Below, one piece after another: positions 1,120-31,581 of a DNA stretch of 64,000 nucleotides. Each line of letters starts with the position of its first letter. The first letter of the stretch is position 1. This DNA comes from Streptomyces venezuelae (GTDB lineage: Bacteria; Actinomycetota; Actinomycetes; Streptomycetales; Streptomycetaceae). The position numbers and the translations under genes were made by a program. The notes beneath the pieces are model-generated. The model was not told the DNA's origin. It saw only the letters and a program-made list of their open reading frames with translations, and searched no databases. Location of the stretch: assembly GCF_008642355.1 (NCBI RefSeq), contig NZ_CP029193.1, positions 992,001 through 1,056,000 on the forward strand. The letters are read 5' to 3'.

Positions 1120-1130
1120 GCCGTGCATAT

Positions 1131-9289: not shown

Positions 9290-9400
9290 GTTTCATAGGT
9301 GGTCCTTCGTGAACTGCAACACTGAGTCGGGATCGCCGCAGCACGTTTTGTTTCATGGAGCGTTTCAAAAGACCTGCGGGTTGCAACACCCCCATGAAAC
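9290..9400. repeat. Repeated GTTTCAT motifs before the recombinase gene
   Basis: GTTTCAT occurs at 9290 and 9350, a near copy GTTTCAA at 9362, and the reverse complement ATGAAAC at 9394. TTGCAACAC or TGCAACAC also occurs twice. The arrangement directly upstream of a serine recombinase resembles a resolvase binding region (res site), which is inference. Confidence 0.4.
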
Positions 9401-9408
9401 GATGGGGT

Positions 9409-10278
9409 ATGGCCGCCGACCCGTACATCCTCGTCGAGCAATACGACTGCCCGATGTCCACCTGCCAGGCCCCCACCGGCTCTCCCTGCCGAACCGCCAA
9501 GGGCCGCGTCGCGATCCAATACCACACTGCCCGTTTCCGGCTCGTCCCGCACCTGAAGAAGGAACTCAGCGTTCCAACTCCCGCTGCTCGCAAGCCCGGA
9601 CAGCGGTGGGAAGCTCTACCCGCCCCCACGGCGGCGAAGACTGGCGGCGCCACCGGCAACGTGCGCATCGGATACGCGCGAGCCTCCACCGCCCGCCAGT
9701 CCCTCGACTACCAGCTCGACGCGCTCAACGATGCCGACGTCAGCCGGATCTTCTCCGAGAAGGTCAGCACCCGCGTCAAAGCCCGGCCCGAACTGACCAA
9801 GGCCATCGAGTTCGCGCGCGAACTCCGCACGACCGGGCTCGAAGTGACGCTCGTCGTCCACGAGCACAAGCGTCTCGGCCGCGGCGCCGACCTCGTCAAC
9901 CTCGCCGAGAGCCTCAAGGAGTACGGCATCCGCCTGGAGTTCCTCACCGGCGAGCTCCGCGGCGAACACGACCCGTCCGGACCGATGTTCGCGTTCTGCG
10001 CCGCCATGTCCGGCATGGAACGCGAGTACATCCGCGAGCGTACCCTCGACGGGCACGAGACCGCCCGCAAGAACGGCAAGACCATCGGCGGCGCCAGCGT
10101 CACCGACGACGACATGCTCGGCATGGCACTCCACCTGCGCGACCAGAACCTCAGCCTGCGCGAGATCGCAGGCAAGCTCGTCATCACAAGCGGCAGGAAG
10201 AAAGGGCAGCATCCGTCGCCAGCAACCGTGATGCGGATGCTCCGCGACCACGACGAGGCCGCAGCCCTGGCGCAGTGA
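9409..10278 (+). CDS. Small serine recombinase (resolvase/invertase type)
   Basis: Cuts and rejoins DNA through a 5'-phosphoserine. The protein is about 289 residues: an N-terminal Cys-rich segment (YDCPMSTCQAPTGSPCRTAK), then the catalytic domain starting RIGYARASTARQSLDYQLDA with the active Ser near residue 93. MSGMEREYIRERTLDG follows, and a C-terminal helix-turn-helix (LSLREIAGKLVITSG). It is resolvase-sized, not a large serine integrase of about 500 residues. ATG 9409 is preferred; 9394 and 9355 are in frame. It may resolve or invert element DNA rather than integrate it. Confidence 0.85.
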   Translation: MAADPYILVEQYDCPMSTCQAPTGSPCRTAKGRVAIQYHTARFRLVPHLKKELSVPTPAARKPGQRWEALPAPTAAKTGGATGNVRIGYARASTARQSLDYQLDALNDADVSRIFSEKVSTRVKARPELTKAIEFARELRTTGLEVTLVVHEHKRLGRGADLVNLAESLKEYGIRLEFLTGELRGEHDPSGPMFAFCAAMSGMEREYIRERTLDGHETARKNGKTIGGASVTDDDMLGMALHLRDQNLSLREIAGKLVITSGRKKGQHPSPATVMRMLRDHDEAAALAQ

Positions 10279-12016: not shown

Positions 12017-13633
12017 TCAGGCAGTTCTGGCCCAGGGCCATTCGGCGTCGCGCCCGGCTTCGAGGAGCGGCACCATGCGGAAGGCGGCGTCGGTGAGACC
12101 GCCGAAGGTGTGGCGCTGACCTCGGCCGGACGGGGCGTGCCCGGCCTGGTAGCCGGCGAGGTTCCACGTGTACAGCTGTGTCGTCTGCGGGATGGACTGG
12201 TCGACTTCGCTGTAGTCGTGCCCCGCCTGCTCGTCGGTGACGATGATGACGCGGTCGTGGCCTGCGAACTCCTGTCGAAGGGCCGCGGCGGTGTCGGTGC
12301 CGCCGCCGAGGAACCATCCGCCGTCTCGCCACTTCTTGACGTCGCTGAGGACGGACCCGCCCGCGGTGAGCGGGAACGCCCTCGTTTTCGCGCCGGGCAG
12401 ATCGCCCATGTAGTAGCGGGCGGAGGAGAAGGAGAGAACGTCGCCGCTGTCGCAGCGGCGCCCGAGTGCGATGCCGAACAGGGCTGCGGCGTCCCAGCGC
12501 ATGAGGGAGCCGTCGCGGGAGAAGGCCTCGTGCATCGACGAGGACGTGTCGACGAGGATCAGTGTCTGGCCGGGCAGCGTCGGGATGTTGACGAGGGACG
12601 CGGTGAGCGCCTTCTCGAGGGCATGGCCCCAGCGTAGCGACGGGGCCGCGTTGTAGGCGGAGTAGAACCGCATCGGCAGCTGGCGGGACTTGGCGACCTG
12701 CTCCGGATCGGCCAGCCGCTTCGCCACCTGCTCGGCGACCTCGTCAGACACTTCGGCCTCGTCGAAGTTGCGCAAGTTCCGCAGCAGCGCCATGTACCCC
12801 ATGGAGGGGATGAGCGCCTCCCACAACTTCGCCTTGTCGACCTTACTGCCCGCCAGGGACAGTGAGTCTTCCCAGGTCATCCCTGCATCGCGCAACGCCT
12901 CGGGGTCAGTGAGCGGATCCAGCACTCCGGTCCGGACCAGGGTGCGCAGTGCTTCGTTCCGTCGGATGACGTGCAGGGTCTCCGGTGTGCCCTCGGCGTT
13001 GCCGTGGCGCCGGTCGAGGGCGTGCTTGAACAGGTCGCCCTGCCAGGGCTTGTCGTCGGCGGGGCTGGCGTGGACGAGGTTGAGGACGTCGCCGAAGCGG
13101 TAGCCCTTGGTCGCAGTGTCGTACTTGAGGAGCGCCCGCTCCGTGTAGAGGCGCTGGACGGCGTCGGCGATGCCGCGCTTGACGGGCTTGGGCAGCTTGC
13201 GGCCGTACTTGGATGTCCAGTAGCCGAGCATCTCGCCGGGCTCGTCGGCGCGCTGGAGGACGGCGTCGATGGCCTGGCGGCTGTAGCCGGGGGCGTTCTG
13301 GAGGATGCGTTCTGCGGTGAACTCGGCGGCTCCGACGAGGGCGGCGGTGCGCATGTTGGCGTCGTTGCGGAGCCAGCGGAGGAAGTCGACGCACCACTGG
13401 GGGTCTTCGGTGGCGAGCTGCCGTATGAGCTGGGTGTATCGGTCGTCGCGCTGGCCGCCCTGCTCGTAGAAAGTGTCCTGGCCGACGAAGTTGGAGACCG
13501 ACAGCAGGAAGAGTTCACTCTTCGCGTCGCGGAGGTATCCGATCGCACCTTCGTGGGTGCGGGTCTGCTCCCCGGTGGTGGTCACGGGCGAGTGGACGGC
13601 GGGACGGGTCGAGCGCGTGTTGAAGCGAGACAT
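12017..13633 (-). CDS. rsr: Ro60/Rsr-type TROVE-domain RNA-binding protein
   Basis: Ring-shaped Ro60 orthologue that binds Y RNAs and structured or misfolded RNAs; in Deinococcus and Salmonella it works with polynucleotide phosphorylase in RNA decay. The 538-residue protein has an alpha-helical TROVE region (residues about 20-350; for example FLRWLRNDANMRTAALVGAA) and a C-terminal von Willebrand A fold. The metal site DTSSSMHEAF begins near residue 361, with TDEQAGHDYSEV near 464. ATG 13633 is chosen since GAGGGG lies upstream; ATG 13648 is an alternative. Two Y-RNA-like RNAs lie directly upstream on the same strand, strongly supporting the assignment. No RtcB/RtcA ligase genes are adjacent. 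Confidence 0.93.
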   Translation of the reverse strand: MSRFNTRSTRPAVHSPVTTTGEQTRTHEGAIGYLRDAKSELFLLSVSNFVGQDTFYEQGGQRDDRYTQLIRQLATEDPQWCVDFLRWLRNDANMRTAALVGAAEFTAERILQNAPGYSRQAIDAVLQRADEPGEMLGYWTSKYGRKLPKPVKRGIADAVQRLYTERALLKYDTATKGYRFGDVLNLVHASPADDKPWQGDLFKHALDRRHGNAEGTPETLHVIRRNEALRTLVRTGVLDPLTDPEALRDAGMTWEDSLSLAGSKVDKAKLWEALIPSMGYMALLRNLRNFDEAEVSDEVAEQVAKRLADPEQVAKSRQLPMRFYSAYNAAPSLRWGHALEKALTASLVNIPTLPGQTLILVDTSSSMHEAFSRDGSLMRWDAAALFGIALGRRCDSGDVLSFSSARYYMGDLPGAKTRAFPLTAGGSVLSDVKKWRDGGWFLGGGTDTAAALRQEFAGHDRVIIVTDEQAGHDYSEVDQSIPQTTQLYTWNLAGYQAGHAPSGRGQRHTFGGLTDAAFRMVPLLEAGRDAEWPWARTA

Positions 13634-13657
13634 AAAGAAGCCCCTCACGTGGAGGGG
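13634..13657 (-). promoter_or_regulatory. Hairpin covering the rsr ribosome-binding site
   Basis: On the minus strand CCCCTC-CACGT-GAGGGG is followed by CTTCTTT and then the rsr ATG. The GAGGGG arm is the likely ribosome-binding site, so the hairpin could hide it. The hairpin plus T-rich tail could also end the upstream Y-RNA transcript. Confidence 0.5.
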
Positions 13658-13670
13658 AGGTCAGCGCTGA

Positions 13671-13813
13671 GGGTGCCCGAGATCAAGGTCGGTGACGGAG
13701 ACAAAGCGCTCTAGGCCGCTGAGCTACCTCCGACCGTTGGTCGGTGGACGGGATTTGAACCCGCGTCTCTCTCTTAGCAGGAGAAGTATCCGTCGCCTGC
13801 GCACCGGGCACCC
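13671..13813 (-). ncRNA. yrlA: YrlA-type Y RNA with a circularly permuted tRNA module
   Basis: A 143-nt RNA ends 37 bases before the Ro60 gene. Its ends pair perfectly over nine bases (GGGTGCCCG/CGGGCACCC). An internal loop (5' GTGCGCA, 3' GACCTTGATCT) is followed by an upper stem (GACGGA/TCCGTC). Within that lie, in order: an anticodon-like arm (TTCTC, CTGCTAA, GAGAG), a T-arm (GCGGG, TTCAAAT, CCCGT), an acceptor 3' strand (CCACCGA), a seven-base linker, an acceptor 5' strand (TCGGAGG, six of seven pairs), TA, and a D-arm (GCTC, AGCGGCCTA, GAGC). That is a whole tRNA opened between D and anticodon arms. Known YrlA RNAs carry tRNA mimics beside a Ro-binding stem. Confidence 0.85.
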
Positions 13814-13824
13814 CCGATGCTGTG

Positions 13825-13893
13825 CCTCCCGAGATCAAAGTCGGCGTGCGGTGCTTGTCCAAGAAGTAACCGCCATGCCTGCGCACCGGGAGG
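13825..13893 (-). ncRNA. yrlB: Short Y-RNA-like RNA (YrlB type)
   Basis: A 69-nt RNA just upstream of the longer Y RNA. The ends pair over seven bases (CCTCCCG/CGGGAGG). It shares with its neighbour the 5' block CCCGGTGCGCAGGC and, with one change, the 3' block CCGACTTTGATCTCGGG, the expected Ro60-binding stem and loop. The upper part lacks the tRNA module and ends in a small loop region. A TACAAC box at about 13903-13908 could be a -10 element. Confidence 0.75.
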
Positions 13894-13980
13894 TGCATGA
13901 AGTTGTAGCCCCACTGTAACCGCCAATACCAGTTACATGTCTAGCGGATTGCGGCAACTGTCGCCCCAGAACCGCGAATC

Positions 13981-14977: not shown

Positions 14978-15328
14978 TTACGCCACCGGGCGAACGGAAG
15001 CAGGAGTTGCCGGGGAAACCTGGCCGCGGGTGAGCAGACCGAGGACGGCAAGGACCAGAGCGTTGACGGCGCCGACGGTCTCCTGGGACACGTCGAGGCC
15101 ATAGGCGGCGAGGAGCGCAAAGCCGACTGCGGCGAGGCCGGTGAACGCGGACGGTGCGATGGGCCGCGTGACGGCTGCGGTCGCCGCGGCGAAGACAGCT
15201 GAGATGACGGCGACGATCGCTGCCGCCTGCTCTGCCGAGAGTCCGTCGAAACCGAAACTGACGAGGAGGGACAGACCTGCGCTGATGCTGGCGACGATGA
15301 GAGCAGGCTCACGGCCGAAGATCTTCAT
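14978..15328 (-). CDS. Putative holin
   Basis: A 116-residue protein with three or four hydrophobic helices (ALIVASISAGLSLLVSFGFD, IVAVISAVFAAATAAVTRPI, FTGLAAVGFALLAAYGLDVS). It lies six bases downstream of the endolysin gene, the usual place for an actinophage holin, which forms the membrane holes for lysis. Confidence 0.75.
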   Translation of the reverse strand: MKIFGREPALIVASISAGLSLLVSFGFDGLSAEQAAAIVAVISAVFAAATAAVTRPIAPSAFTGLAAVGFALLAAYGLDVSQETVGAVNALVLAVLGLLTRGQVSPATPASVRPVA

Positions 15329-15334
15329 GGTGTC

Positions 15335-16348
15335 CTACTTCCAGTACAGGCCGCGGAGGCGCGACGTGGTGATGGTGATGGATCTTTGGTCGTCGGCTTC
15401 GACGGGCCAGTAGCAGGCCTCGAAGCGGAGCTTTTCCGTCGCTGCGATCGATCCGGAGTTGTGGAAATCCGCGAAGGTGCTGCCCGCCGTGCCCTGTCGT
15501 TCGCTGAGTCCGGCTGTCCATCGGGAGCCGTCAGTGCGGTAGTGGTAGAAGCGGCCCTGCAGCGTTGCCCCGTCGGGGAGTTCGGCGGTGATCTGCGCCA
15601 TCGCCTGGTAGGCGGACGCCCCGGTCAGCAGGTCGACGCCCTCGATCGGGAGGGTGGTCCACTTGCCGGGAGTCAGCGGCCGGTCTGCGGTCTCGTACCG
15701 TCCGAGGGTGTACGGCACGGTCTCCTCCTGATCGGGCTCGTCCCCTGGAGTCCATCCGGCGGGGTGGTCGAGGCGTTCATCGACGTCCTTGCGGAACTGG
15801 TCCATGTCGAAGCTGGGGTCGATCTTTCGGCGGGTGCCTTCCTTGTGGCCGATCACCGAGTCGGCCGACCAGCCGTGCGCGCGGCAGATCGCCGCCGCCC
15901 ATCGGACCGCGGCGTCGTACTGCGCGGCGGGGTAGGGGTCACGACCGTTCCCGAGGTTCTCGATCTCGATGCCGTAGTAGTGGGCGTTGCCGTCCACCGG
16001 TTCCGAGCTATCCGGTCGCGGATGCGTCGGCGACTCGTTGACGACGGCCTGGTGTGCGTTGGCCGCGAACGTTCCGGCGTGGTTCGCGCGGCCTGCGCTG
16101 AGCATGGTGGCGGTGCCGCTCTTCGCGAGATGGGTGTGACAGAGCGGGCCCGGCAGATCGGATGTTCCTGTCCAGCACACGCTGAGGCTGCTGGAACCAG
16201 CCGTGTGGTGGATGACGACGCCATTCACCGGCCCCCATGGGCCCTTGTGGTTGCGGTTGTGGGTGCGCCAGCCGGCCTTCTCGGCGACGCGGACGCCTTC
16301 TCTGCGGAGGGCTGCGAGGAGGGCGTCCGGGGTGAGGGGTTGAGCCAT
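15335..16348 (-). CDS. Endolysin, N-acetylmuramoyl-L-alanine amidase
   Basis: Cleaves the amide bond between muramic acid and the stem peptide. The 337-residue protein has an Amidase_2/PGRP domain at about residues 20-200: NGVVIHHTAGSSSLSV with a zinc-ligand His, HYYGIEIENLGNG, and VIGHKEGTRRKIDPSFDMDQ with the later His and catalytic Lys. The C-terminal 130 residues are beta-rich (LPDGATLQGRFYHYRTDGSR) and probably bind the wall. It sits directly upstream of the holin candidate. Confidence 0.9.
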   Translation of the reverse strand: MAQPLTPDALLAALRREGVRVAEKAGWRTHNRNHKGPWGPVNGVVIHHTAGSSSLSVCWTGTSDLPGPLCHTHLAKSGTATMLSAGRANHAGTFAANAHQAVVNESPTHPRPDSSEPVDGNAHYYGIEIENLGNGRDPYPAAQYDAAVRWAAAICRAHGWSADSVIGHKEGTRRKIDPSFDMDQFRKDVDERLDHPAGWTPGDEPDQEETVPYTLGRYETADRPLTPGKWTTLPIEGVDLLTGASAYQAMAQITAELPDGATLQGRFYHYRTDGSRWTAGLSERQGTAGSTFADFHNSGSIAATEKLRFEACYWPVEADDQRSITITTSRLRGLYWK

Positions 16349-16360
16349 GGTCGGCCCCTT

Positions 16361-16792
16361 CTAGTAGTCCCAGGTGGTGCCGACGAGCTGTGCGTGTTCG
16401 AGGGGCCAGGGCTGGTCGTGGTCGTGCCACACTTCGACGCCGACGGGTTGTCCGGCTTGTCCGGCGAAGAACCAGCTGGTGGTTTCCCAGCTGCGGCCGG
16501 GGGTGGCAAGGTGGTCGGCTGCTCCGGTGTCGTCACGGTCGCCGTAGGGGTCGCGGATGAAGCGGGACATGAACTGCCGCGGCCGGGTGTCGCCCTCGGG
16601 AACGGCGATGGAGGCCCAGCGCAGGTTGCGGGCCCACAGGAAGTCCCCGTCGAACGGCGGCATGATCAGCATGTTGTTGCGGGCCATGTTCCGGTCGTTG
16701 ATGATGACCCGCTCGTAGGTGACGAGCGTCCACGTCTCCGGCGGGATGAGCTGCGGCTTCTCGCCGCGGTAGAGCTTGCAGACGGTGGCCAC
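16361..16792 (-). CDS. Phage tail-region protein, unknown
   Basis: A 143-residue protein with aromatic and acidic residues (NMARNNMLIMPPFDGDFLWA; GVEVWHDHDQPWPLEHAQLV). It lies between the endolysin and the tail-tip proteins. No family recognised. Confidence 0.6.
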   Translation of the reverse strand: MATVCKLYRGEKPQLIPPETWTLVTYERVIINDRNMARNNMLIMPPFDGDFLWARNLRWASIAVPEGDTRPRQFMSRFIRDPYGDRDDTGAADHLATPGRSWETTSWFFAGQAGQPVGVEVWHDHDQPWPLEHAQLVGTTWDY

Positions 16793-16802
16793 GTGCGCCT
16801 CC

Positions 16803-17444
16803 TCACAGGCTGCAGAACTTGCCGTTGAAGGACACCCACGGCGGCTGGATCTTCGGGTCGGCGGTGGCGGAGGTGGTGCCGACGATCTGGATGCGCCCGT
16901 CCGTCCCGATGTCGATCTTCACGGAGAGGACGTCGGAGTCCGTCGTCGAGCAGGCGCCGGTGAGGCTGCGCAACGATGACGGGCGTGCAGCGGTCACCAG
17001 AGGCGTGTTGGTGACGAAGCCGCTGTTCGGAATGACCTTGGGGCTGCCGGAATAAGTGATGTTGACGCCGCCCCGCAGCATCAGCGTGTCCTCACCGAAA
17101 AGGTTCACGATCCGGTACTGCAGGGTGCCGTTGCTGTTGCCGTTGTGGGCGAACCCGCTCGCGAGGCTGATCGTGGTCCAGGCCTTGGTGCCCGACCCGA
17201 TCACCGACCAGGAGCTTCCGTCGTAGACGGTGAGCAGGTCGACGTCCCGCAGCCACGTCACCATGCCCTCGACCGGTGCCGCGTCACCGACCAGAGTTGC
17301 GGCGCGCTCGGATGACGACGCGAACCGCATCGTGGAGCGGGACGCGATGGGGTTGACGATGTCCTTCGCGAGCTTGCTGGCGTCCGGCGGATCGGTGAGC
17401 GCGGCGATGCCGATGCCCTGCCCGTAGTCGTCAGTGGTGGGCAT
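16803..17444 (-). CDS. Tail-tip/receptor-binding-type protein
   Basis: A 213-residue protein. The N-terminal half is typical of actinophage tail proteins (VTWLRDVDLLTVYDGSSWSV). The C-terminal 125 residues form a beta-rich domain (NSNGTLQYRIVNLFGEDTLM) that resembles the C-terminal domain of the protein at 17667. Probably surface exposed. Confidence 0.65.
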   Translation of the reverse strand: MPTTDDYGQGIGIAALTDPPDASKLAKDIVNPIASRSTMRFASSSERAATLVGDAAPVEGMVTWLRDVDLLTVYDGSSWSVIGSGTKAWTTISLASGFAHNGNSNGTLQYRIVNLFGEDTLMLRGGVNITYSGSPKVIPNSGFVTNTPLVTAARPSSLRSLTGACSTTDSDVLSVKIDIGTDGRIQIVGTTSATADPKIQPPWVSFNGKFCSL

Positions 17445-17656
17445 CAGACCTCCGGGACTTCCGTCGTGACCGCGGAGGTGCGGTTCACGGTGATGAGGTT
17501 GGCGCCCGCGAGCTCTGAGACTGCGCGAGCAAGTTCCCAGGCGAGGGCGGGCATGTCGCCGTCGGTGACGGGCGAGTAGTCGCCCTCCTGCAGCACGACG
17601 TCGATCGAGGACTCGCCGCCGTTCACGACGACGCGGTAGGTAGCAGGGGCGGCCAT
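17444..17656 (-). CDS. Small tail-region protein
   Basis: A 70-residue protein (ATYRVVVNGGESSIDVVLQE). It overlaps its downstream neighbour by one base and sits between the two paralogous tail-tip proteins. No family recognised. Confidence 0.6.
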   Translation of the reverse strand: MAAPATYRVVVNGGESSIDVVLQEGDYSPVTDGDMPALAWELARAVSELAGANLITVNRTSAVTTEVPEV

Positions 17657-17666
17657 GGTGGGCCTT

Positions 17667-18335
17667 TCAGTCGAGCGGGTAGCGGATGCCCTTGAGGGAC
17701 AGCCAGTTGGTTTCCGTGGCGCCGGCCGCGGCGGAGATGAGCTGTACGGTGCCGTCGGAGTCGAAGTCGACTTTCAGCGAGTGCACGACTGACGTGCTCA
17801 GTGACACCCCTGAGATGGATGTTGCGTTGCGGGCGATCACGAACGAGGCGCGGGCGGCAGGCCGGAGGTCGGCGCTCAGCGCGGCGGAGAGGATGTTCGA
17901 GGTCTGGGCACCGGTCGCGCGGGTGGCGCCGCCGTCCCATTCCATCCACCAGCCGCCTTGCCAATTGATCTTGCGGTAGCGGATGGGGCCGTTGTTGTTG
18001 CCCTGGGTACTGGTGTTGCCCTGGATGTAGCCGGTGCCCAGTGTCGGTGTCGTCCACCCCGGATCGCCGGAGCTGAGGCGTCCGAGGGCGAGCCAGTTGC
18101 CGCTGCTGGACTGGGTGACCGCGATGACGTCACCGACGAGCGGCAGCGTGTACGTCTCCAAGCGGCGCACCGTAATGCCGTCGTCGGTGACGACGGTGCC
18201 GCCAGCGTTGACGGTCTGGACGGTGGCGAGCCGCCAGTCGGCGCCGCGCACGCTCGGTGTGCTGGTTCCGGCGTCGACGGCCTGCCGCTGGAGCGCGTCG
18301 GCGAGCTGCCGGACCGTGCCATGAGAGGACTTCAC
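17667..18335 (-). CDS. Minor tail protein
   Basis: A 222-residue protein. Residues 25-100 have an OB/baseplate-like section (WRLATVQTVNAGGTVVTDDG, then LPLVGDVIAVTQSSSGNWLA). The C-terminal domain (PIRYRKINWQGGWWMEWDGG) is paralogous to that at 16803. It overlaps the DUF5047-like gene by four bases. Likely part of the tail tip. Confidence 0.7.
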   Translation of the reverse strand: MKSSHGTVRQLADALQRQAVDAGTSTPSVRGADWRLATVQTVNAGGTVVTDDGITVRRLETYTLPLVGDVIAVTQSSSGNWLALGRLSSGDPGWTTPTLGTGYIQGNTSTQGNNNGPIRYRKINWQGGWWMEWDGGATRATGAQTSNILSAALSADLRPAARASFVIARNATSISGVSLSTSVVHSLKVDFDSDGTVQLISAAAGATETNWLSLKGIRYPLD

Positions 18336-19423
18336 GCGTCCTCCTTCGCCGCGATCGTCGCGATGGGGAAGTCTCCGCCGACGTCGAGTGGCACGGAGAA
18401 CGACTGCACCTGGTGGAGCTCACGGCTGCCGTCGGGGTGGACGACGCGGATGACATCACCCGGCTCGAGCGCGGGGTTCGGCAGCGACGAGAAGTCCCCG
18501 GACGCGTTCGGCGCTCTGGCCGCGGCGAGCTTCAGATTCGCTGCCTGCGCGCACGCGTTGACCGTGGTCAGCGTCGAACTGGAGTAGAACATTGGCCGCC
18601 TGCCATAGGGGCCGCTCCAGTAAGTGGGGCTGTTCGGGTCATTGTCTGTGGCCAGGAAGCTGACCGGGGCGACGTTCTCCTCGGTGTTCTCGCCGCGTGC
18701 GAGGACCCCGTTGTGTACCTGGTCGCTGGTCATGGCGCGGCTGCCCTGCACGTACACGCCGCCGTCCCCGGCTGCGACCTCCCATACTGCGGGCGTGGTC
18801 TGCAGATCAGGCAGGCTCGCGATCACGAACACCCCGTCGGCGTTGGTGTAGCACTCGGCGCCGGCGGCAGCCACGATCTCCTGCACGCCCGCCCACGGGT
18901 CAGCTTCGACGTCGAATGTGCGGGAGCCGATCGGGGCGTCGACGATGGTGCTGATGACGTCGGCGTCCGGCAGAGACCGCTGAATCAGTGCGGTCGCGGC
19001 ACCGACAACCGTGCCGGTCGCCTTATACGGCTCGGTGAGCTTGTCGTCGGCAACGCACGCTTCCAGTGACTTGCCCTGGAGTGTGACGGGCCCGTCGGCT
19101 GGGTCGCCGTCAACACTGTCGAGACGGAAGACCCCGAGGGGGACGAGCTCTTGGGAGCCGTCTGCATAGGTGACGCCGCGGGCGATCCGCAGCCGGGCCC
19201 CATAGGTGGCCAGCTGATCCGTCGGCGTGCGCGGGATCAGCGACACGTCGGCGCAGGTGACGGTGCAGGTGCGGCGGATGGCCTGCCCGCGGTCAACCGG
19301 CACCGAGCCGCCCGTGTGCTCCAGGGTGACCACGCTGCCGTCCGTGAGGAAAAGTTTCACCTCGGTGGGCGGCTCATGGGACTCCCCCAAGCGTGGCAGG
19401 AACCGGTCGGAGACGGGGTACAC
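18332..19423 (-). CDS. DUF5047-like minor tail protein
   Basis: A 363-residue baseplate-type protein. GTG 19423 is chosen because YPVSDRFLPRLGESHEPPTE matches the family N-terminus and it lies just after the upstream stop. A beta-rich first half carries LVPLGVFRLDSVDGDPADGP; the second half carries DVEADPWAGVQEIVAAAGAE and GDVIRVVHPDGSRELHQVQS, typical of siphophage tail hub proteins. Confidence 0.8.
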   Translation of the reverse strand: MYPVSDRFLPRLGESHEPPTEVKLFLTDGSVVTLEHTGGSVPVDRGQAIRRTCTVTCADVSLIPRTPTDQLATYGARLRIARGVTYADGSQELVPLGVFRLDSVDGDPADGPVTLQGKSLEACVADDKLTEPYKATGTVVGAATALIQRSLPDADVISTIVDAPIGSRTFDVEADPWAGVQEIVAAAGAECYTNADGVFVIASLPDLQTTPAVWEVAAGDGGVYVQGSRAMTSDQVHNGVLARGENTEENVAPVSFLATDNDPNSPTYWSGPYGRRPMFYSSSTLTTVNACAQAANLKLAAARAPNASGDFSSLPNPALEPGDVIRVVHPDGSRELHQVQSFSVPLDVGGDFPIATIAAKEDA

Positions 19424-19427
19424 GGCG

Positions 19428-21662
19428 TCACCCCAGCCTGCGGTCGAGGAGGACACCCTCCCAGGAGGCATACGTGGTGAGCAGGCCCGCCCAGGTGTCG
19501 AACTCCGCCAAAACGTCCTGCCAGGTGCGGCCCGCGCTGCCCCCGAGACCGGTCGTGACGGGCATGTCCGTCTCGGTCAGAGGCAGGGTCCAGGCCCGCC
19601 ACGGCTCCATAGCGGTGCCGCCGACACGTGCCTCCGTGGCCTGGGCGACGGTGACGTACATGTCGGCCACGCCCATGCCTGGTGCCGCCTGCCACAGCAG
19701 CACGTTTCCGGAGTCGAGGAGCCAGTGCAGCCCAGCCCGCTCCTCATCCGTCTGCGTCCACAGGGCGAGGTCGCCCTCCAGGCCGCCGCGGACCCCGGAG
19801 AGCACCACGGCGTTGCGGCGCCCTTTGACCCGGTACACGGACTGCTCGATGGGCCGCTGCCACTCCGGCGGTCGCGAGATCAGGAACCGGCGGTTGCGCT
19901 GCGGCGCACCCGGGTCTTTCAGCCACGCCCAGTTGGGGTCTCCGGCGGTGATGGTGACGGTGTCGGAGGTGCGGGTGCTCGGGGTGGTGGCACCATCCGG
20001 CCACAGCTCAATCCGGTAGTACAGGGCGGCGCCGAGGGGCGCCTCATAGTCCTCGACGATCATCAGGTCCGAGGTGATCGGCTCCTTGTCGAGGAGGCCG
20101 CTCGGGCCGCGCACCAGGGTGCGGACACCGTCTACCCCGACCCGGTAGACGCTGATGGACTGCCCGACCGGCAGCTCCCGCAGGGTGAGGGTGATGCTGG
20201 CGGTTTCGTCGACGGCGGCGACAGCGGTGAGCGGCAGGGTCTGCCACAGCGCCACCCAGTCGACGTACATCGCCGAGTTGGTGGCGCCTGCCGTCAGGGT
20301 GAGTTCGATCGCCCCCTGGGTGGCGGTGGCGGGGACGCTCGCATCGGTCGTCATCGCGTACCAGCCGGCGCCGGGGAAGCTGTAGCTGGTGCCCCCGGTC
20401 GTCCCCAAATCCAAGTTGGAGGCGTCGTACCAGCGCACCTTCAGGTTGACGGTCCACGATCCCGCTCCGAGGGAGGCGAGGATCTGCGCCCGGTAGCTGG
20501 TGCCCACGCCGCCCGGGGTGGCGAAGCGCGCCGACCGGACGACGCTCGCCGTGGCTGTCGCCGAGGTGACCGACATCGAGTACGAGCCGTCGTAAGAGGC
20601 CTGCCCCCATGGCGTGGACCGGGCGATGACCGCGACTCCTGAGGGCCGCGTCCACCCGGCGACGCCCTGCTCGAAAGCTGTGTCCGCATACGGCAGGACG
20701 GTCCCAGCCTGCGCGGACGGGGCGACCATGACGACGACGCTCTCCAACCGCAGCACCTGCCCGGCCGAAGCTCCGTTGACTCCTGCCGCGACACTGCACG
20801 TCGCCGCGTTCACCGGGGCGATGCCCGACGCGCGCTGCCGGTACCAGCCCGAGCCGGGCGGCGGCGAAACGAGCGTGCCGCGGGATGCTGAGATCTGGTT
20901 GCCGTTGCTGTCGTAGAAGCGCAGCTCAAGCCAGCAGTCCGCCGCGAGCGTGGGCGGATTGAGGTAGGCGTAGGCAAGGTAGTCGGTGCCCGGCGTGACG
21001 GACGGCCGGTCGACGGATACCGCGGACGCGTTGCCCGCGCCGGTCGCGGTGACCGCGATGGTGTGGGCGCCCCCCAGGTAGTTGTCGACCGCCCACAGCG
21101 CGATCGGCACCTGCCGGGACACAGACGCGTTGACCTCGGCTGTCCACCCGGACGCGTCGATCTCTGACGACTCCGTGCCGAAACCGAATAGATTGCCGGT
21201 CGTCCTGATCGGCAACCCCAGATACAGGTTCTCCCAGAAGTGGTTGATCAGGCCCGCGCCCGGAGTTGACGACAGCAGCAGCTGCGCCTGTGTCGCCCCG
21301 GCCGGCGCCATCCCTGCCACGCCGACCCGGTGCCAGCCGCTGTACGCGGCCGTTGTGACCAGCGACCACGTCACTGAGATCTCGGAGCCTGTGGCGCTCA
21401 GCCAACGGATCCCGATCCGCTCCGGCACCGTCCCTGCAGCGTCGGCAAAGCACTGATAGACGGTGCCCGCGGTGACCGGGTAGGAGGAGACGGTGCGGGC
21501 CTGCACCTCCCCCGCCGCCACACTCTTGACGATTAGGCAGCCGTCCCCGACCCGGCCCCCGGTGCCCTTGCTGATCGTGCAGTTGAGCTTGCTCGTCCAG
21601 CCGGAGGTGTTCGGATCAACCTCCGAGGTGGTGGCGGAAAGCAGGTTCCCGGGGATCGCCAC
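19428..21662 (-). CDS. Large minor tail protein with carbohydrate-binding-like modules
   Basis: A 744-residue protein. The first 450 residues hold three beta-sandwich modules of carbohydrate-binding type, each with a GWHR/GWYR/GWYA strand (YSGWHRVGVAGMAPAGATQA; GSGWYRQRASGIAPVNAATC; GAGWYAMTTDASVPATATQG). A fibronectin-like part (YRIELWPDGATTPSTRTSDT) and a tail-hub-like C-terminus follow. It lies directly after the tape measure gene, as distal tail proteins do. It probably touches the host surface. Confidence 0.78.
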   Translation of the reverse strand: MAIPGNLLSATTSEVDPNTSGWTSKLNCTISKGTGGRVGDGCLIVKSVAAGEVQARTVSSYPVTAGTVYQCFADAAGTVPERIGIRWLSATGSEISVTWSLVTTAAYSGWHRVGVAGMAPAGATQAQLLLSSTPGAGLINHFWENLYLGLPIRTTGNLFGFGTESSEIDASGWTAEVNASVSRQVPIALWAVDNYLGGAHTIAVTATGAGNASAVSVDRPSVTPGTDYLAYAYLNPPTLAADCWLELRFYDSNGNQISASRGTLVSPPPGSGWYRQRASGIAPVNAATCSVAAGVNGASAGQVLRLESVVVMVAPSAQAGTVLPYADTAFEQGVAGWTRPSGVAVIARSTPWGQASYDGSYSMSVTSATATASVVRSARFATPGGVGTSYRAQILASLGAGSWTVNLKVRWYDASNLDLGTTGGTSYSFPGAGWYAMTTDASVPATATQGAIELTLTAGATNSAMYVDWVALWQTLPLTAVAAVDETASITLTLRELPVGQSISVYRVGVDGVRTLVRGPSGLLDKEPITSDLMIVEDYEAPLGAALYYRIELWPDGATTPSTRTSDTVTITAGDPNWAWLKDPGAPQRNRRFLISRPPEWQRPIEQSVYRVKGRRNAVVLSGVRGGLEGDLALWTQTDEERAGLHWLLDSGNVLLWQAAPGMGVADMYVTVAQATEARVGGTAMEPWRAWTLPLTETDMPVTTGLGGSAGRTWQDVLAEFDTWAGLLTTYASWEGVLLDRRLG

Positions 21663-21665
21663 AGG

Positions 21666-24600
21666 TCACCTCCTGCCAGCTCGGACGGTGGTGGTGAGGG
21701 CCGTGAAGGTCTGCTGTACTTCCCCGCGGACGTGGCCGAGGAATTCCCCGCTGTCGAGGGTGAGGGTTCCGGTGAACTCCCCTCCCCTGCCTGCGCTTGC
21801 AGACGTTGCGATGCGCGTGAGCGCGCTGGCCTGCGCCTGCGTGAAAACCGGCTCGGGCCGGCCGGTGCCGTTGTAGGCGAGGTTGAGGCCGGGCTGGAGG
21901 TATCCGCCCTGGTCGTACCAGTGCGGGCTGCGGGACAGCCACTTCGAGTAGGCCCGTGCGGGACTGCCGTAGTCGGGGCGGCCCTTGATGTAGCCGAGAC
22001 CCCAGCGGATCTGGGTCTTGTAGTTGGTGAGGTAGTCGGCGCCCGCCGATCGCATCTTGGAGGCGGGCAGGGACTGCGGGATGCCGTAGGCGCCCGACGA
22101 GCGGTTTAGTGCGTCCCAGCGCCAGTTGGACTCTCCCTCCCACAGCTTCTTCAGCGGCCCGAACTGCGAGGGCCCCCAGCCGTAGCGGTGGAGGATCGAC
22201 TTGGCGTACTGCTGTGCGGCACCGACCGCAGCGCTGGGGAAGCCCTTGCCTCCGCCCCCGGTGAGGAACGGCATCGGGTCCACGGGGCGCCCGTTCCTGC
22301 GGGCCTCGAGGTGGAGGTGCGGGCCGGTGGTGTTGCCGGTCGCGCCGACCTCGCCGATCGTCGTGCCCCGGTTGACGTGCTTGTGGAGCTTGGTGAGGAT
22401 CGCGGACATGTGGGCGTAGAAGGAGGAGAGCCCGCCGCCGTGGTTGATCGCGACATGCTTGCCGTAGGGGCCGCCGGAGGCGACCTGGGAGACGGTGCCG
22501 TCGCTGACGGCCCGGATCGGTGTGCCGGTTGCGGCGGGGAAGTCGAGGCCCGTGTGGCGGCCGGACGACCACATGCTGCCGCGGACCCCGAACCGGGTTC
22601 CGTACTTCGCGTTGACGGGCTTGAGCCACTCGCCTCCGCCGCCGCCGGCGAACATGCTGGACACGGCGTCGACGATCTTGTTCTTGAGCCCGGACACCAT
22701 CTTCAGCGGGAACTTCGCGATCGCCTTCCCCATCGGCGCCGTACCGACCCCCTTGGTGACTTTGGACAGGATCGGCTTGACGAGCTTCGACCAGATCTTG
22801 GAAGGGTTGGCGATCAGATCGGCGCCGGTCTTGGCCCAGTCGATGCCCTTGCCGACGACGTCGGACACGGTGTCCTTCGTCCAGTCCCAGGCGTCGCCGA
22901 TCGGGCCGAGGAAGCCGCCCGCCGCCATCAGCTTCGTGCCTGCAGCCGCGTGCAGGGCCTGCGCGCGGTTGCGGTACTTCGGATCCGTGGGGATCACGAA
23001 CTCGGGATAGCGGGGGTTGCCCTCGCCGACGATCGCGGTCGGCCGGTTCACTTTCATCGGCGCGGCCGGACCGAAGCCGTTTCCGACGCTGCCACCTGCG
23101 GCAAGGAGCTTGGGCGCATCGGGGAGTTTGCCGAGCCCGACGAACTTGGCCACGCGATCCCAGACGGCTTTTATCCCTTTTGTGTATACCCACTTGATTA
23201 CGAAGTTGACGGGCTCCTTCGTGATGTCTTTGATCTTGCCGAAGGCCGTACCGATGGCCTTACGGGCAGAGTCGAAGGCGCGCCCGACGAGACGCACTGC
23301 CTCCTTGATCTTGTCGAACGCGGGCTTCAGGCCCTTCGTGTACAGCCACGATGCCCTGTCGGCTATCCACCCGAACGTCGGCTTGATAGAGGACCGCCAC
23401 AGCCACGACGCCACGCTGCCGATACCGCGGAAAGCAGGCCGGATCGCGTTCTCGTACAGCCACTTACCGATCCGGCCGACAAACCGGAAAGAGGCCACGA
23501 TGCCGTTGCCCATCGGGCGGATCGCGCTCCGGTACAGCCACCCGGCGACCGTCGCGATGCCCGTGAACGCAGGCCGGATCGCCGCGTTGTAGAGCGACCT
23601 CGCTGCACCGCCGATACTCCGGAACGCCGGACCGAGCGCCACCCGCCAAAGCCACGCTCCGGCCGCGCCAGCCAGCCGGAACGCGATCACGATCGGCGCG
23701 ACGAGCAGCGTAATGATGACCGCGGCGAGAATGCGGGCGCCCAGAGAGATCCCGTCGAACGCGGGCTTGAGGCCGGTACGCCACAGCCACATCGCCCAGC
23801 GGCCCACCGTCTGAGCCCCGGCCACGATGCCGTCGAACGTCGGCTTCAGGAAGCTGTTCCAGGCGACCGAGGCCGCGGTCTGGATCCCCGACCAGGCGGC
23901 CTGAACACCCTGGCGGAACCACGAGAAATGCTTGTACGCGTAGATGACGGCCGCGACGAGCGCGACGATCGCCAAACCGACCAGCACGATCGGGTTCGCC
24001 TTCATCACGACGTTGAGCAGGAACAGCGAGAGGGTCCACAGCTTCGTCGCGATGTAGGCGAGGTACATGCCCTGGATCAGCCACGGCAGCGTCGTCGCGA
24101 TCGACGCCAGCCCGCGGGCCAGCGCGCCCAGCACCTCCAGCACCGGCCCCGACAGCGGGGCCAGCGCCTTCGCGACCTGGTAGAACGCCGAAGAAATGTC
24201 GCCGATCGTGCGGGCGACGAGCGGCCCGTTCTCCGCCGCATACGCGAGGAACCGTTCGAACGCAGGGGACCCCTTGAGGCCGGTGCCCCATGCGGCGAAG
24301 CGGCCAGTGATGGCCTGCATCCGCGCACTGATGGAGTCCATGTGGGGCAGGAAGGCCTGGATGATGCCACCCATGCCCTTGAAGAGGTTCCCGAAGGCGA
24401 CGCCGAGCCCGATGATCGCCGGACGGGTGGCGCCCGCCAGATCGGACTTGAACTCCTTCCAGCCTTCCGACTTGAACCCGCGCGACGCCCGGTCCTGCAG
24501 CTCACCAATCGCATCCGCGGCGGCCTTCACGAACGGGGTGAGGCCCGGCAGCGAGTTCTTCAGCCCGATAAGCGCGCGGGTAAAGATGGGCATGACCTGC

Positions 24601-26522
24601 GGCTGCAGCGACTTCGACCAGTCGCCGAACGCGCTCTTCAGATCGACGAACGCGTCGAACGTCTTCCGCGCCGACGGCGTCAACTTGTCCAACGCGGCCT
24701 GATACTTGGCCTGCGCGACGGCAGCCTGATCCACGCCCCCGGCCGCAGACTGCGACGCGGAGGTAACCTGACGCTGAGCCGAAGCGATCGAATCCGCGGC
24801 CGACTGCTGCGCAGCCACCAGAGACTCCTGGGCGCGCGCCACCGAACGCGCGCCGTCCTCCTGAACCCGGGTGACGTTGCGCTGCGACTCGGCGACCTTC
24901 TCCTGCGCCTCAGCGATGTCCCGCTGCCCCTGAACCTGCTGCCGGGCCGCCTCAGTACGAGACTTGCTCAGAGCTTTCTGCTGCTCGGCGACACCCCGCT
25001 CGGCGTCCCTCAGCCGCTCCTGAGCGCTCCGGACCGTCTCCGAACCCTCAACGCCAGCCCTGTCCGCGGCCTTCTTCTCGCCGGCCAGCCGCTTCGTCTC
25101 GGCCTGCTGCTCCTTGAGGCGCTGCACCGCCTGGTCATAGGCAAGCTGCGCCCGCTGCTGCTCCAGCAACGTGGCCTTCGAGCCGACAGCCTGCGTCGCC
25201 CGCAGCCGGAGCCGGGCCTCCTCCACAGACAGGACCGCGTCCCTCTCGGACAGCTGCGCATCCGCCAGCCGGTTCGACAGCTCCGCCAGCTCGGCGACAG
25301 CATCCCTGCGGGCCTGGGTGAGATCCTGCTGAGCCTGCCGCGCCGTGCGCTGCGCGTCCGCGAGGGACTGCTCGGCCTGCGCGACGCGTTCGGCGGCATC
25401 CCGCTGCCGGTCCGCGGCCTGCTGCACCGCATCCGCCAGTGCTTGCCGGGCAGCCTTGACCTGCTGGGATGCCTGCCGGTTCGCCTCGGCGGACGACCTC
25501 ACGGCATCCGCGACCGCCTGCTCCGCCTGCGAGACCTGGCGTGCGGCATTGCGGTGCGCGGTCGCCAACGCCTGCTGGGCTCCAGCCATCTGCAGCGCCT
25601 TCGAGGCGCCCTGCCCGTTGGCCTGACCGCCCTTGATGGACGCGGTCGTCGCAGCGTCCTGCGCGGCCTTCTGCGCCTGCAACACCTTCGCCATCCCAAC
25701 GAACGCCGGAATGGCGACAGCTGCGAGCGCACCAACGCCAGCCCCGGCGGCAACAGCCGCCGAGGCAATCGCGCCAAGCCCCGCGGCGAGAATCGGGATC
25801 GCAGGGATCGCGGCGACACTGCCCAACGCGACCGTGAGCCCGAAAAGGGCAGCCGTGGCCTGCGCGGTACTGACGTTGGTGTTGATGTTGATGCGCTTGC
25901 CGTCAACCGCGGCGATCGCCGCCCGCACCGCCGCCAGCTGTGTGAGCGCCGTCGCCGTGTCCGCCCGCACCTGCACGTTCGGGTGCTTCGCACCGAGACG
26001 GGTCAGCTCAGCCTCGATCGCCCGGATCTCCGCCTTCGCCTCGGCAGCGGTGATGTCGATACCGATCCGCTTGTCCGCCAGCGTCTCCATGCGGAACCGC
26101 AAGGCCTGCAGATCCGAGTCCGCCTCAGACGTGTCGGCGCCGATCTGCAGCTTCGGCAGCGACCGGAACGCCGCCTGCAAATGCACCTTCATCGCACGGG
26201 AGAAAGCCCCCGCGGTCTCATCGCCCTGCCGGACAGCGCCCGGGCGGGCCGTGCGGCCACCCTGGTTGACGCCGTCACGGATCGCATCCCGCAGCGCCGA
26301 CGTGATGCGGTTGGCGATCTGCTGCCCGATCTGCTGGCCAATCGAAAGGCCGACGTTGCCGACCTGCGCCTGCATCGCCGGACCGAACGACCTGCCAGCG
26401 GCCTCACCCGCGTCCTCACCGGCGCGCGTCGCCGCCGGGACCAGACCGGACCGCAGCCGGGAGTAGATCCCCTGAGTGTTTGGGATGACGTCGACTTCGA
26501 CGCTGCCGACCTGGATCGCCAC
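21666..26522 (-). CDS. Tape measure protein with M23 peptidase and transglycosylase domains
   Basis: Sets tail length and helps DNA entry. The 1618-residue protein has an N-terminal tape-measure start, a coiled coil at about 300-600, hydrophobic segments near 810-960, and repeated helical units with FDGI/WLWR motifs at about 890-1110. Then an M23 zinc peptidase follows (GRHTGLDFPAATGTPIRAVS near 1323; GPHLHLEARRNGRPVDP near 1400). Last is a lysozyme-like transglycosylase (LWEGESNWRWDALNRSSGAY near 1462, Glu as likely catalyst). Carrying both a peptidase and a glycosidase lets the tail cut both bond types of the wall. Confidence 0.93.
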   Translation of the reverse strand: MAIQVGSVEVDVIPNTQGIYSRLRSGLVPAATRAGEDAGEAAGRSFGPAMQAQVGNVGLSIGQQIGQQIANRITSALRDAIRDGVNQGGRTARPGAVRQGDETAGAFSRAMKVHLQAAFRSLPKLQIGADTSEADSDLQALRFRMETLADKRIGIDITAAEAKAEIRAIEAELTRLGAKHPNVQVRADTATALTQLAAVRAAIAAVDGKRININTNVSTAQATAALFGLTVALGSVAAIPAIPILAAGLGAIASAAVAAGAGVGALAAVAIPAFVGMAKVLQAQKAAQDAATTASIKGGQANGQGASKALQMAGAQQALATAHRNAARQVSQAEQAVADAVRSSAEANRQASQQVKAARQALADAVQQAADRQRDAAERVAQAEQSLADAQRTARQAQQDLTQARRDAVAELAELSNRLADAQLSERDAVLSVEEARLRLRATQAVGSKATLLEQQRAQLAYDQAVQRLKEQQAETKRLAGEKKAADRAGVEGSETVRSAQERLRDAERGVAEQQKALSKSRTEAARQQVQGQRDIAEAQEKVAESQRNVTRVQEDGARSVARAQESLVAAQQSAADSIASAQRQVTSASQSAAGGVDQAAVAQAKYQAALDKLTPSARKTFDAFVDLKSAFGDWSKSLQPQVMPIFTRALIGLKNSLPGLTPFVKAAADAIGELQDRASRGFKSEGWKEFKSDLAGATRPAIIGLGVAFGNLFKGMGGIIQAFLPHMDSISARMQAITGRFAAWGTGLKGSPAFERFLAYAAENGPLVARTIGDISSAFYQVAKALAPLSGPVLEVLGALARGLASIATTLPWLIQGMYLAYIATKLWTLSLFLLNVVMKANPIVLVGLAIVALVAAVIYAYKHFSWFRQGVQAAWSGIQTAASVAWNSFLKPTFDGIVAGAQTVGRWAMWLWRTGLKPAFDGISLGARILAAVIITLLVAPIVIAFRLAGAAGAWLWRVALGPAFRSIGGAARSLYNAAIRPAFTGIATVAGWLYRSAIRPMGNGIVASFRFVGRIGKWLYENAIRPAFRGIGSVASWLWRSSIKPTFGWIADRASWLYTKGLKPAFDKIKEAVRLVGRAFDSARKAIGTAFGKIKDITKEPVNFVIKWVYTKGIKAVWDRVAKFVGLGKLPDAPKLLAAGGSVGNGFGPAAPMKVNRPTAIVGEGNPRYPEFVIPTDPKYRNRAQALHAAAGTKLMAAGGFLGPIGDAWDWTKDTVSDVVGKGIDWAKTGADLIANPSKIWSKLVKPILSKVTKGVGTAPMGKAIAKFPLKMVSGLKNKIVDAVSSMFAGGGGGEWLKPVNAKYGTRFGVRGSMWSSGRHTGLDFPAATGTPIRAVSDGTVSQVASGGPYGKHVAINHGGGLSSFYAHMSAILTKLHKHVNRGTTIGEVGATGNTTGPHLHLEARRNGRPVDPMPFLTGGGGKGFPSAAVGAAQQYAKSILHRYGWGPSQFGPLKKLWEGESNWRWDALNRSSGAYGIPQSLPASKMRSAGADYLTNYKTQIRWGLGYIKGRPDYGSPARAYSKWLSRSPHWYDQGGYLQPGLNLAYNGTGRPEPVFTQAQASALTRIATSASAGRGGEFTGTLTLDSGEFLGHVRGEVQQTFTALTTTVRAGRR

Positions 26523-26543
26523 GGGAGTCGCCTCCCGCCTGCG

Positions 26544-27280: not shown

Positions 27281-27324
27281 GGCGCGGACCTCCTAGAGGG
27301 TTGTGGCGCGGGCGCGGATGTGCA

Positions 27325-27368
27325 GGTGGACGGGACGCTGTCCGCGCCCAGACGGCGGCCCGTCCACC
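27325..27368 (-). terminator. Hairpin after the major tail protein gene
   Basis: GGTGGACGGG and CCCGTCCACC, a perfect 10-bp stem with a 24-base loop, between major tail protein and chaperone genes. It probably damps rather than ends transcription, giving more tail protein than chaperone (inference). Confidence 0.5.
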
Positions 27369-27381
27369 CGTTCAAGAGGGC

Positions 27382-27966: not shown

Positions 27967-28041
27967 CGGTTGTCTCCAGACATGCGTGTAGCCCGCGCAC
28001 GGGCGGGATCTGAGGAGGGCTGGCGCGGGCCCGAGGGCCGG

Positions 28042-28769: not shown

Positions 28770-28797
28770 CGCCCCCAGCCTGAGAAGAGGGAAGTGA

Positions 28798-29573: not shown

Positions 29574-29582
29574 CGTCGCCTC

Positions 29583-31570: not shown

Positions 31571-31581
31571 GATTCCTTCTC

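What the first reader, a model, noticed from the sequence alone, without database searches (positions are those of the whole stretch)
12017..13893. Ro60 (TROVE) gene with two upstream Y RNAs inside a phage-like element
Seen directly: a TROVE plus vWA protein with an intact DTSSS metal site, and two RNAs directly upstream on the same strand that share a near-identical stem and internal loop. Established: bacterial Rsr proteins are often encoded beside Yrl RNAs and act in RNA decay and quality control. Inference: the element carries a complete Ro ribonucleoprotein, possibly to steer host RNA turnover or tRNA-processing enzymes during lysogeny or growth.
Basis: partly seen in the sequence, partly recalled or inferred. 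Interest (0 to 1): 0.88.

Follow-up and report, generated by a model that had tools for sequence, protein, structure and literature searches.

The report
Phage Ro60 with anticodon-bearing Y RNA
A Streptomyces prophage carries a Ro60 RNA-quality-control protein and two Y RNAs, one of which looks like a complete but cut-and-rejoined transfer RNA that keeps an anticodon arm, a part that the descriptions of bacterial Y RNAs seen here do not include.

Summary
Window 12017-13633 (-) encodes a real Ro60: all 13 solved-structure matches at E<=0.001 are Ro/TROVE chains, with an intact MIDAS. Two Y RNAs lie directly upstream on the same strand (short ~13825-13893, long ~13672-13812); both have pairing support across homologues. 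The element is a ~93.8-kb prophage in the 3' end of uppP, bounded by a 135-bp repeat. Phage Ro60 beside tRNA-mimicking Y RNAs is a known kind. The added finding: the long Y RNA reads as a complete tRNA circularly permuted at 26/27. Besides the T arm, acceptor helix and D arm of known YrlA it has an anticodon arm (13769-13785, loop CUGCUAA). Selecting homologues by loop letters alone, 194 of 195 stem cells next to the loop pair; selecting by stem alone, 48 of 49 have U33. 15 of 27 loop sequences equal loops of the host's own tRNAs. Such RNAs occur in phages, one plasmid and other genomes of the genus. Most likely the Ro ring shows a full tRNA surface to tRNA-recognising enzymes; a decoy for anticodon nucleases is the boldest open reading. 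No expression or binding data exist here.

The parts
12017..13633 (-). Ro60/Rsr protein (TROVE ring + vWA), 538 aa from the ATG at 13633 (GTG start at 13648 also possible)
13641..13657 (-). hairpin CCCCUC-CACGU-GAGGGG between the long Y RNA and the Ro AUG; its 3' arm holds the Shine-Dalgarno letters and a U-rich run follows (attenuator/terminator-like, inferred)
   Evidence: -10 kcal/mol, z -2.06, 8 of 200 shuffles as good; a stem of at least 5 bp somewhere in the last 38 nt in 86 of 96 distinct upstream sequences, no shuffle control
13672..13812 (-). long Y RNA (Y stem + complete permuted tRNA module)
13769..13785 (-). anticodon arm UUCUC-CUGCUAA-GAGAG (tRNA positions 27-43; anticodon GCU)
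13765..13768 (-). 4-nt variable region AGAC (44-48)
   Evidence: sequence
13748..13764 (-). T arm GCGGG-UUCAAAU-CCCGU
13727..13747 (-). acceptor-like helix closed by a short loop (3' strand first, then 5' strand): no free CCA end
13708..13724 (-). D arm GCUC-AGCGGCCUA-GAGC, preceded by U8 A9 and followed by G26 at 13707
13694..13698 (-). 3' strand of the upper Y stem (CCGUC), pairs with GACGG 13790-13794
13825..13893 (-). short Y RNA without tRNA module
13913..13943 (-). candidate promoter upstream of the Y RNAs (TAGACA, 19-nt spacer, TACAGT)
   Evidence: read by eye; similar boxes at the same place in several phage homologues printed; not tested
987..1121 (+). attL: 135-bp exact direct repeat at the 3' end of uppP/bacA; second copy at window coordinate 94811-94945, beyond the window
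14978..35833 (-). late genes of the prophage (holin, endolysin, tape measure, portal, terminase large subunit); the Ro cassette lies beyond their 3' end
9355..10278 (+). serine recombinase (PF00239)

Best explanation
The locus is a self-contained Ro60 ribonucleoprotein cassette of a temperate Streptomyces phage. Shown from sequence: a Ro60-fold protein, two upstream Y RNAs with the same Ro-stem type, and a long Y RNA whose head is a complete tRNA (anticodon arm, variable region, T arm, acceptor helix, U8-A9, D arm) opened between positions 26 and 27 and sewn shut at the acceptor end. Inferred: the Ro ring binds the common Y stem; the short Y RNA gates or occupies the ring; the long Y RNA displays a tRNA-shaped head with a real anticodon loop, so that enzymes that read the tRNA elbow or anticodon arm (RNA-modification enzymes, PNPase, possibly tRNA nucleases) dock on or are titrated by the particle in the lysogen or during infection. 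It is not a decoding tRNA.
For: Ro60 fold and MIDAS. Covariation on 44 homologues: 28 of 34 pairs with changes on both sides, 0 of 500 shuffles as high. Anticodon arm by two tests that do not select on what they measure: by loop letters alone, 65 of 105 segments, pairs 31-39 65/65, 30-40 64/65, 29-41 65/65 against shuffle means 29.6, 28.6 and 55.2; by three Watson-Crick pairs alone, 49 segments, U33 48/49, R37 48/49, A38 48/49. 63 of 102 segments fit fixed tRNA geometry against a mean of 8.3 and a maximum of 17 for shuffled letters (by eye 3 of the 63 are false and 4 more fit). 15 of 27 distinct loops equal loops of this genome's own tRNAs, column-shuffled mean 7.58, 0 of 5000 as high. Of 14 loci from genomes not used before, found with the covariance model, 9 show the arm (the script said 10, L213 discounted by eye). 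Not a decoding tRNA: no free acceptor end, and a 4-nt variable region under a serine anticodon whereas the host's tRNA-Ser(GCU) has a long variable arm. Known YrlA is modified by DusA and TruB and binds PNPase (PMC8394870, passage).
Against: No transcript, binding or phenotype data. Single-sequence folding energy is unremarkable, and the minimum-energy fold of the window's long RNA forms a 4-nt-loop hairpin in place of the 7-nt anticodon loop. RNAalifold did not pick the arm on alignment A1. Class B RNAs (YrlA-like, no anticodon arm) stand in the same place in other phages and in this genome's second Ro locus (L002), so the arm is not required beside Ro. Pair 28-42 only equals the best shuffle (59 of 65) and pair 27-43 does worse than shuffled letters (56 of 65, mean 58.6). 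Sequences are related, so the counts are not independent.
Confidence: 0.68

Rival explanations
1. Anti-defence decoy: the anticodon arm copies host anticodon loops so that anticodon nucleases released in phage defence bind or cut the Y RNA instead of tRNA, with Ro60 holding it stable.
For: Loops equal host tRNA loops and differ between loci. Phage tRNAs counter tRNA-cutting defences (PMC11555353, PMC12409363: starts of abstracts in the search listing). A competitive-inhibitor role for YrlA against an anticodon nuclease was raised by the authors of PMC7790460 (passage).
Against: The same RNA class sits in 15 of 19 Ro loci of same-genus genomes that I take as chromosomal. U36 dominates (66 of 84) although known nuclease targets are wider (recalled). 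I did not search the host for such a nuclease. In Salmonella YrlA was not a substrate of the nuclease (PMC7790460, passage).
Confidence: 0.18
2. Ordinary RYPER-type tether: the tRNA-like head simply binds PNPase as in Deinococcus, and the anticodon arm is a neutral leftover of a captured tRNA.
For: The Ro-Y-PNPase machine is the only worked-out bacterial mechanism that I met (PMC8394870 and PMC7790460, passages). Class B RNAs lack the arm.
Against: A neutral leftover would not keep 194 of 195 stem cells paired with changing letters, together with U33 and R37-A38.
Confidence: 0.3
3. Precursor of a working tRNA: the permuted RNA is cut at the hinge and religated at 26/27 into a functional tRNA.
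For: Rotated into tRNA order the window RNA is called tRNA-Ser(GCU) by ARAGORN. Phage Kela carries an RNA ligase gene beside Ro.
Against: Serine anticodon without the long variable arm; D loop and variable region resemble the host's tRNA-Glu rather than tRNA-Ser (by eye); no mature 3' end. ARAGORN also called some class B controls (67 of 87 records in all), so that call is weak.
Confidence: 0.04
4. Decayed passenger cassette without present function.
For: A region with the Ro gene is missing in one L2 mycobacteriophage, Underpass, that still forms lysogens (PMC12714340, passage).
Against: Intact ORF, invariant MIDAS, covarying RNA, same layout in many phage contigs.
Confidence: 0.05

Closest known systems
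YrlA RNA (Rfam RF02553; Salmonella YrlA, PDB 6CU1) with Rsr
   Same: Y stem plus permuted tRNA-like module with T arm, closed acceptor helix and D arm, encoded beside Ro60
   Different: Known YrlA mimics the D, T and acceptor arms (PMC8394870, passage), and in the Rfam model the strands outside the T and D arms pair with each other. Here the permutation point is 26/27 and a full anticodon arm is kept. The window RNA and every Y RNA in the 20 other loci tested stay below Rfam's gathering score.
Deinococcus radiodurans Rsr-Y RNA-PNPase (RYPER)
   Same: Ro60 ring (2NVO among the fold matches) with Y RNAs
   Different: PNPase binding untested here; prophage setting; tRNA-complete Y RNA
Phage Ro-like proteins (Thermus phage phiLo 9kop/9l5y; actinophages BRock, Alone3, VanLee, Neville; Listeria phage CKA15)
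   Same: Phage-encoded Ro60; Y-type RNAs upstream in several of the nine named phages read; guessed for CKA15 by its authors (PMC12282133, passage)
   Different: Identity 27.7% to phiLo, 41.0-47.2% to BRock, Alone3, VanLee and Neville. Three of nine named phages have an arm-bearing Y RNA by the criterion.
Circularly permuted tRNA genes (red alga, archaea; recalled)
   Same: 3' half before 5' half
   Different: Those are spliced to working tRNAs; this one is embedded in a Y stem and has no mature end

Membership tests
Ro60/Rsr (TROVE) protein | TROVE ring plus vWA fold | tested here: met
Ro60/Rsr (TROVE) protein | intact MIDAS metal site | tested here: met
   D362, S364, S366, T446, D467 invariant in 21 sequences, (which residues make a MIDAS is recalled)
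Ro60/Rsr (TROVE) protein | binds Y RNA | not testable with these tools
   no binding data
bacterial Y RNA / YrlA | long stem of 5' and 3' ends, encoded next to Ro60 | tested here: met
bacterial Y RNA / YrlA | tRNA-like module with T arm, closed acceptor helix and D arm in that order | tested here: met
   long RNA only
bacterial Y RNA / YrlA | score above Rfam RF02553 gathering cut-off | tested here: not met
   20.5 bits against 69; none of 20 other loci had a YrlA hit over the cut-off either
bacterial Y RNA / YrlA | strands flanking T and D arms pair with each other, as in the RF02553 structure | tested here: inconclusive
   in class A the strand before the T arm forms the anticodon arm; the alternative pairing GAGAC/GUCUC exists in the window but was written out and not counted across homologues; class B relatives show such pairing by eye
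functional tRNA | free acceptor end and type-correct variable arm | tested here: not met
   closed acceptor hairpin; 4-nt variable region with a Ser anticodon
RYPER (Ro-Y-PNPase) | PNPase tethered by the Y RNA | not testable with these tools
   no binding data

The most novel reading that the evidence does not exclude
Actinobacterial phages carry Ro60-bound, circularly permuted but complete tRNA mimics whose anticodon loops copy the host's own tRNA loops, and use them as stable decoys or docking platforms for enzymes that act on the anticodon arm: anticodon nucleases of phage defence, or the modification enzymes that read U36-A37. Streptomyces hosts have kept such cassettes as chromosomal Ro loci.
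Probability: 0.2. Interest if true: 0.86.

Novelty: new variant of a known kind. Interest (0 to 1): 0.6.

Why it matters
What the tRNA-like head of bacterial Y RNAs is for is open. A Y RNA class that keeps a covarying anticodon arm, with loops equal to host tRNA loops and mostly of the U36-A37 type, points to partners that read the anticodon arm and makes that directly testable by deleting or swapping one 17-nt hairpin. It may also explain pieces of actinophage genomes now annotated as tRNAs next to Ro genes.

Tried and rejected
Single-sequence folding as proof: weak z-scores and a minimum-energy fold unlike the proposed arms, so comparative evidence was used. ARAGORN on rotated RNAs as proof: positives also occur among class B controls (67 of 87 records), so it is kept only as illustration. 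(392 genomes) used a pattern whose gap was too short; it missed even the window's own genome and is ignored. The tally 124 of 148 is inflated by junctions between tandem tRNA genes (model positions 36-113/116); only matches over positions 1-162 at 75 bits or more, in 16 of 148 genomes, were taken as Y RNAs. The operator idea TTGCTNGACAAGCAA: exact in 11 of the 233 loci held, but in the window only 4 matches at 3 mismatches, expected 1.71, none upstream of the Y RNAs, so not claimed. PADLOC on 10 proteins of the element: one weak hit, ShosA-like, at 3322-3795. The Ro tree is a quick tree without bootstraps and with a midpoint root, so direction of transfer is not claimed.

Rows dropped or changed by hand: after I moved 4 segments into class A and took 3 out by eye. 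Alignment A1 uses 44 of the 47 non-redundant class A RNAs (84 distinct); the 3 left out are in L070, L098 and L107. Because class A was defined partly by arm pairing, the arm percentages on A1 lean towards it; one search is the test without that fault. One odd host tRNA call over 90 nt was left out. Short Y RNAs over 105 nt were left out (5 of 68).

Full report
WHAT WAS CHECKED. The window is G000:C1:992001-1056000 of an 8.02-Mb single-contig genome. The closest named relative of the Ro protein is in Streptomyces sp. NRRL F-5135 (80% identity). The Ro gene at 12017-13648 (-) is real. The AlphaFold2 model matches only Ro/TROVE proteins at E<=0.001, 13 of 13, among them the Ro60 of Thermus phage phiLo, D. 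radiodurans Rsr and animal Ro60. The same genome has a second Ro gene, 59% identical, at 1799303-1800886, with a short and a long Y RNA of its own.

THE ELEMENT. Holin, endolysin, tape-measure, portal and terminase genes lie upstream on the same strand. The 3' end of uppP (987-1121) recurs exactly, 135 bp, at window coordinate 94811-94945. Alignments to uppP of two relatives stop within about 10 bases of the end of the repeat. So the prophage is about 93.8 kb and runs past the window. The Ro cassette lies beyond the 3' end of the late genes, where accessory genes of prophages often sit (recalled).

THE TWO RNAs. Homologous loci in phage contigs and genomes share the layout short Y - long Y - Ro in most of those printed; some have three Y RNAs, some fewer. 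Short type: 32 non-redundant sequences of 63 usable (68 distinct), 18 consensus pairs, 10 with changes on both sides. Long type: 44 sequences (of 84 distinct, 47 non-redundant). RNAalifold finds the Y stem, T arm, acceptor helix and D arm, 25 of 29 pairs with changes on both sides; it did not include the anticodon arm, whose columns MAFFT had gapped. Counting the whole proposed structure, 91.7% of cells pair against 36.7-50.6% when partners are slid, and 330 cells change on both sides against a shuffled mean of 102.3.

THE ANTICODON ARM. Between the conserved UACUUC of the Y stem and the T arm the window has UUCUC-CUGCUAA-GAGAG, then a 4-nt variable region, then the T arm: tRNA numbering 27-53 in one run. 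After the acceptor hairpin come U8-A9, the D arm and position 26, which leads back into the Y stem. So the RNA reads as a complete tRNA permuted at 26/27. Because class A was first found by this pattern, I tested it two ways that do not select on what they measure. Loop letters alone (U33, R37, A38): 65 of 105 segments, inner stem cells paired 194 of 195, against 22-59% with the partner slid by 1-2. All four Watson-Crick pairs occur at 30-40 and at 31-39. Stem alone: 49 segments, U33, R37 and A38 each 48 of 49. The two outer pairs add nothing: 28-42 equals the best shuffle, 27-43 is below the shuffle mean. Seven-nt loops are much the commonest among loops of 3 to 11 nt: 68 of 105 segments, next 33. 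Shuffled letters in the same frame give 8.3 of 102 (maximum 17) against 63. Against it: the window's own minimum-energy fold does not show this arm, and the alternative pairing GAGAC/GUCUC was not counted across homologues.

LOOPS OF THE HOST. Of 27 distinct loop sequences 15 equal a loop of this genome's tRNAs (44 distinct loops from 56 distinct ARAGORN calls, one left out); column-shuffled loops give 7.58 on average, 0 of 5000 reach 15. 72 of 84 RNAs carry such a loop. One of 21 anticodons (AUU) is not in the host set; no stop anticodon occurs. U36 is found in 66 of 84 RNAs (36 of 52 distinct arms) against 11 of 44 host loops. The commonest anticodon is GCU (23), then GUU (14) and CUU (8).

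WHERE IT OCCURS. By the criterion, recounted: arm-bearing RNAs (class A) in 55 of 81 viral-contig loci (14 class B only, 12 neither; some loci overlap), in 3 of 9 named phages (BRock, Alone3, VanLee), in 1 of 2 plasmids, and in 15 of 19 same-genus genome loci (3 class B only, 1 neither); in 0 of 7 same-order loci of another family. The same-genus loci are taken as chromosomal from a shared neighbourhood, not verified one by one. In 6 of the 15 a class B RNA (YrlA-like) follows. In class B the strand before the T arm can pair with the strand after the D arm (read by eye). The window genome's second Ro locus has class B only in the 729 nt of the locus that were read. These loci were found through Ro or through Y-stem patterns, so the fractions are not population frequencies. 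In a covariance search of 148 genomes of the class, 16 have full-length matches of 75 bits or more; of 14 loci from genomes not used before, 9 show the arm. Annotated tRNAs just upstream of Ro in Alone3, VanLee and Frankenweenie overlap Y RNA sequence.

ORIGIN, INFERRED. The covariance model also rings, at positions 36-113/116, across junctions of tandem tRNA genes, for instance at 2461108-2461185 between two tRNAs 5 nt apart in this genome. Such a junction has the order anticodon arm - T arm - acceptor - next acceptor - D arm. Several phage Ro genes lie among tRNA genes. Capture of a tandem-tRNA junction into a Y stem would give this RNA in one step.

FUNCTION. Known: YrlA is modified by DusA and TruB, and Ro-Y complexes with PNPase degrade structured RNA (PMC8394870, passages). 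The authors of PMC7790460 raise that YrlA might inhibit an anticodon nuclease competitively (passages). A Ro-like protein of mycobacteriophage LeBron is toxic when overproduced (PMC13148394, passages). TROVE proteins of some jumbo phages are discussed under RNA repair (PMC7824862, passages). From the anatomy I hold a tRNA-shaped docking or titration head on a Ro ring as most likely; which enzyme reads it is unknown. A decoding tRNA is unlikely (closed acceptor end; Ser anticodon without a long variable arm).

NOVELTY. The cassette is a new member of a known kind. The permutation point and the anticodon arm make the long RNA a new variant, as far as I could see. In the listings and passages seen from paper searches I met no description of such an arm, but the library lacks the key papers: Chen et al. 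2014, Sim and Wolin 2018 and Wang et al. 2018 were asked for and not held; Sim et al. 2020 was not asked for. They may mention it.

Noticed in passing
window 987-1121 and window coordinate 94811-94945: 135-bp exact direct repeat at the 3' end of uppP/bacA: attachment sites of a ~93.8-kb prophage.
   Followed up: yes
window 13641-13657: Hairpin just before the Ro AUG whose 3' arm holds the Shine-Dalgarno letters, with a U-rich run; similar hairpins in many phage relatives, a different GAATTC hairpin in most same-genus genome loci.
   Followed up: partly
L124, L125, L132 (phages Alone3, VanLee, Frankenweenie): tRNA-Ser(gct), tRNA-Arg(tct) and tRNA-Pro(tgg) annotated just upstream of Ro overlap Y RNA sequence.
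   Followed up: partly
L079, 299-439 (- strand): A Y stem that seems to enclose an unpermuted tRNA-like sequence, beside three further Y-type RNAs.
   Followed up: partly
Ro tree of 100 proteins: The Ro proteins of same-genus genome loci form one shallow group inside a much deeper phage diversity; root not fixed.
   Followed up: partly
L042, L044, L045, L048, L049, L076, L081, L088, L094, L106, L116: Palindrome TTGCTNGACAAGCAA, in those printed lying just upstream of the Y RNA promoter region; degenerate in the window.
   Followed up: partly
window 8692-8782 (-): Odd 91-nt tRNA-Ala(cgc)-like prediction in the prophage near the recombinase (ARAGORN; RF00005 31.2 bits).
   Followed up: no
window 10379-11155 (+): Weak PIN-domain protein (E 2.8e-4, below cut-off) followed by a 103-aa protein, near the Ro gene.
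   Followed up: no
window 3322-3795 (+): DprA/ShosA-like protein (Pfam E 2.4e-6 below cut-off; PADLOC PDLC03961, E 6.7e-5), possible defence gene in the prophage.
   Followed up: no
window 6963-7859 (+): Protein with ATP-dependent DNA ligase domain (PF01068) in the same element.
   Followed up: no
window 60583-62064 (+): Helix-turn-helix protein joined to a peptide deformylase domain.
   Followed up: no
G000:C1:2461108-2461185: Tandem tRNA junctions score with the Y RNA covariance model, a possible source of permuted tRNA modules.
   Followed up: partly
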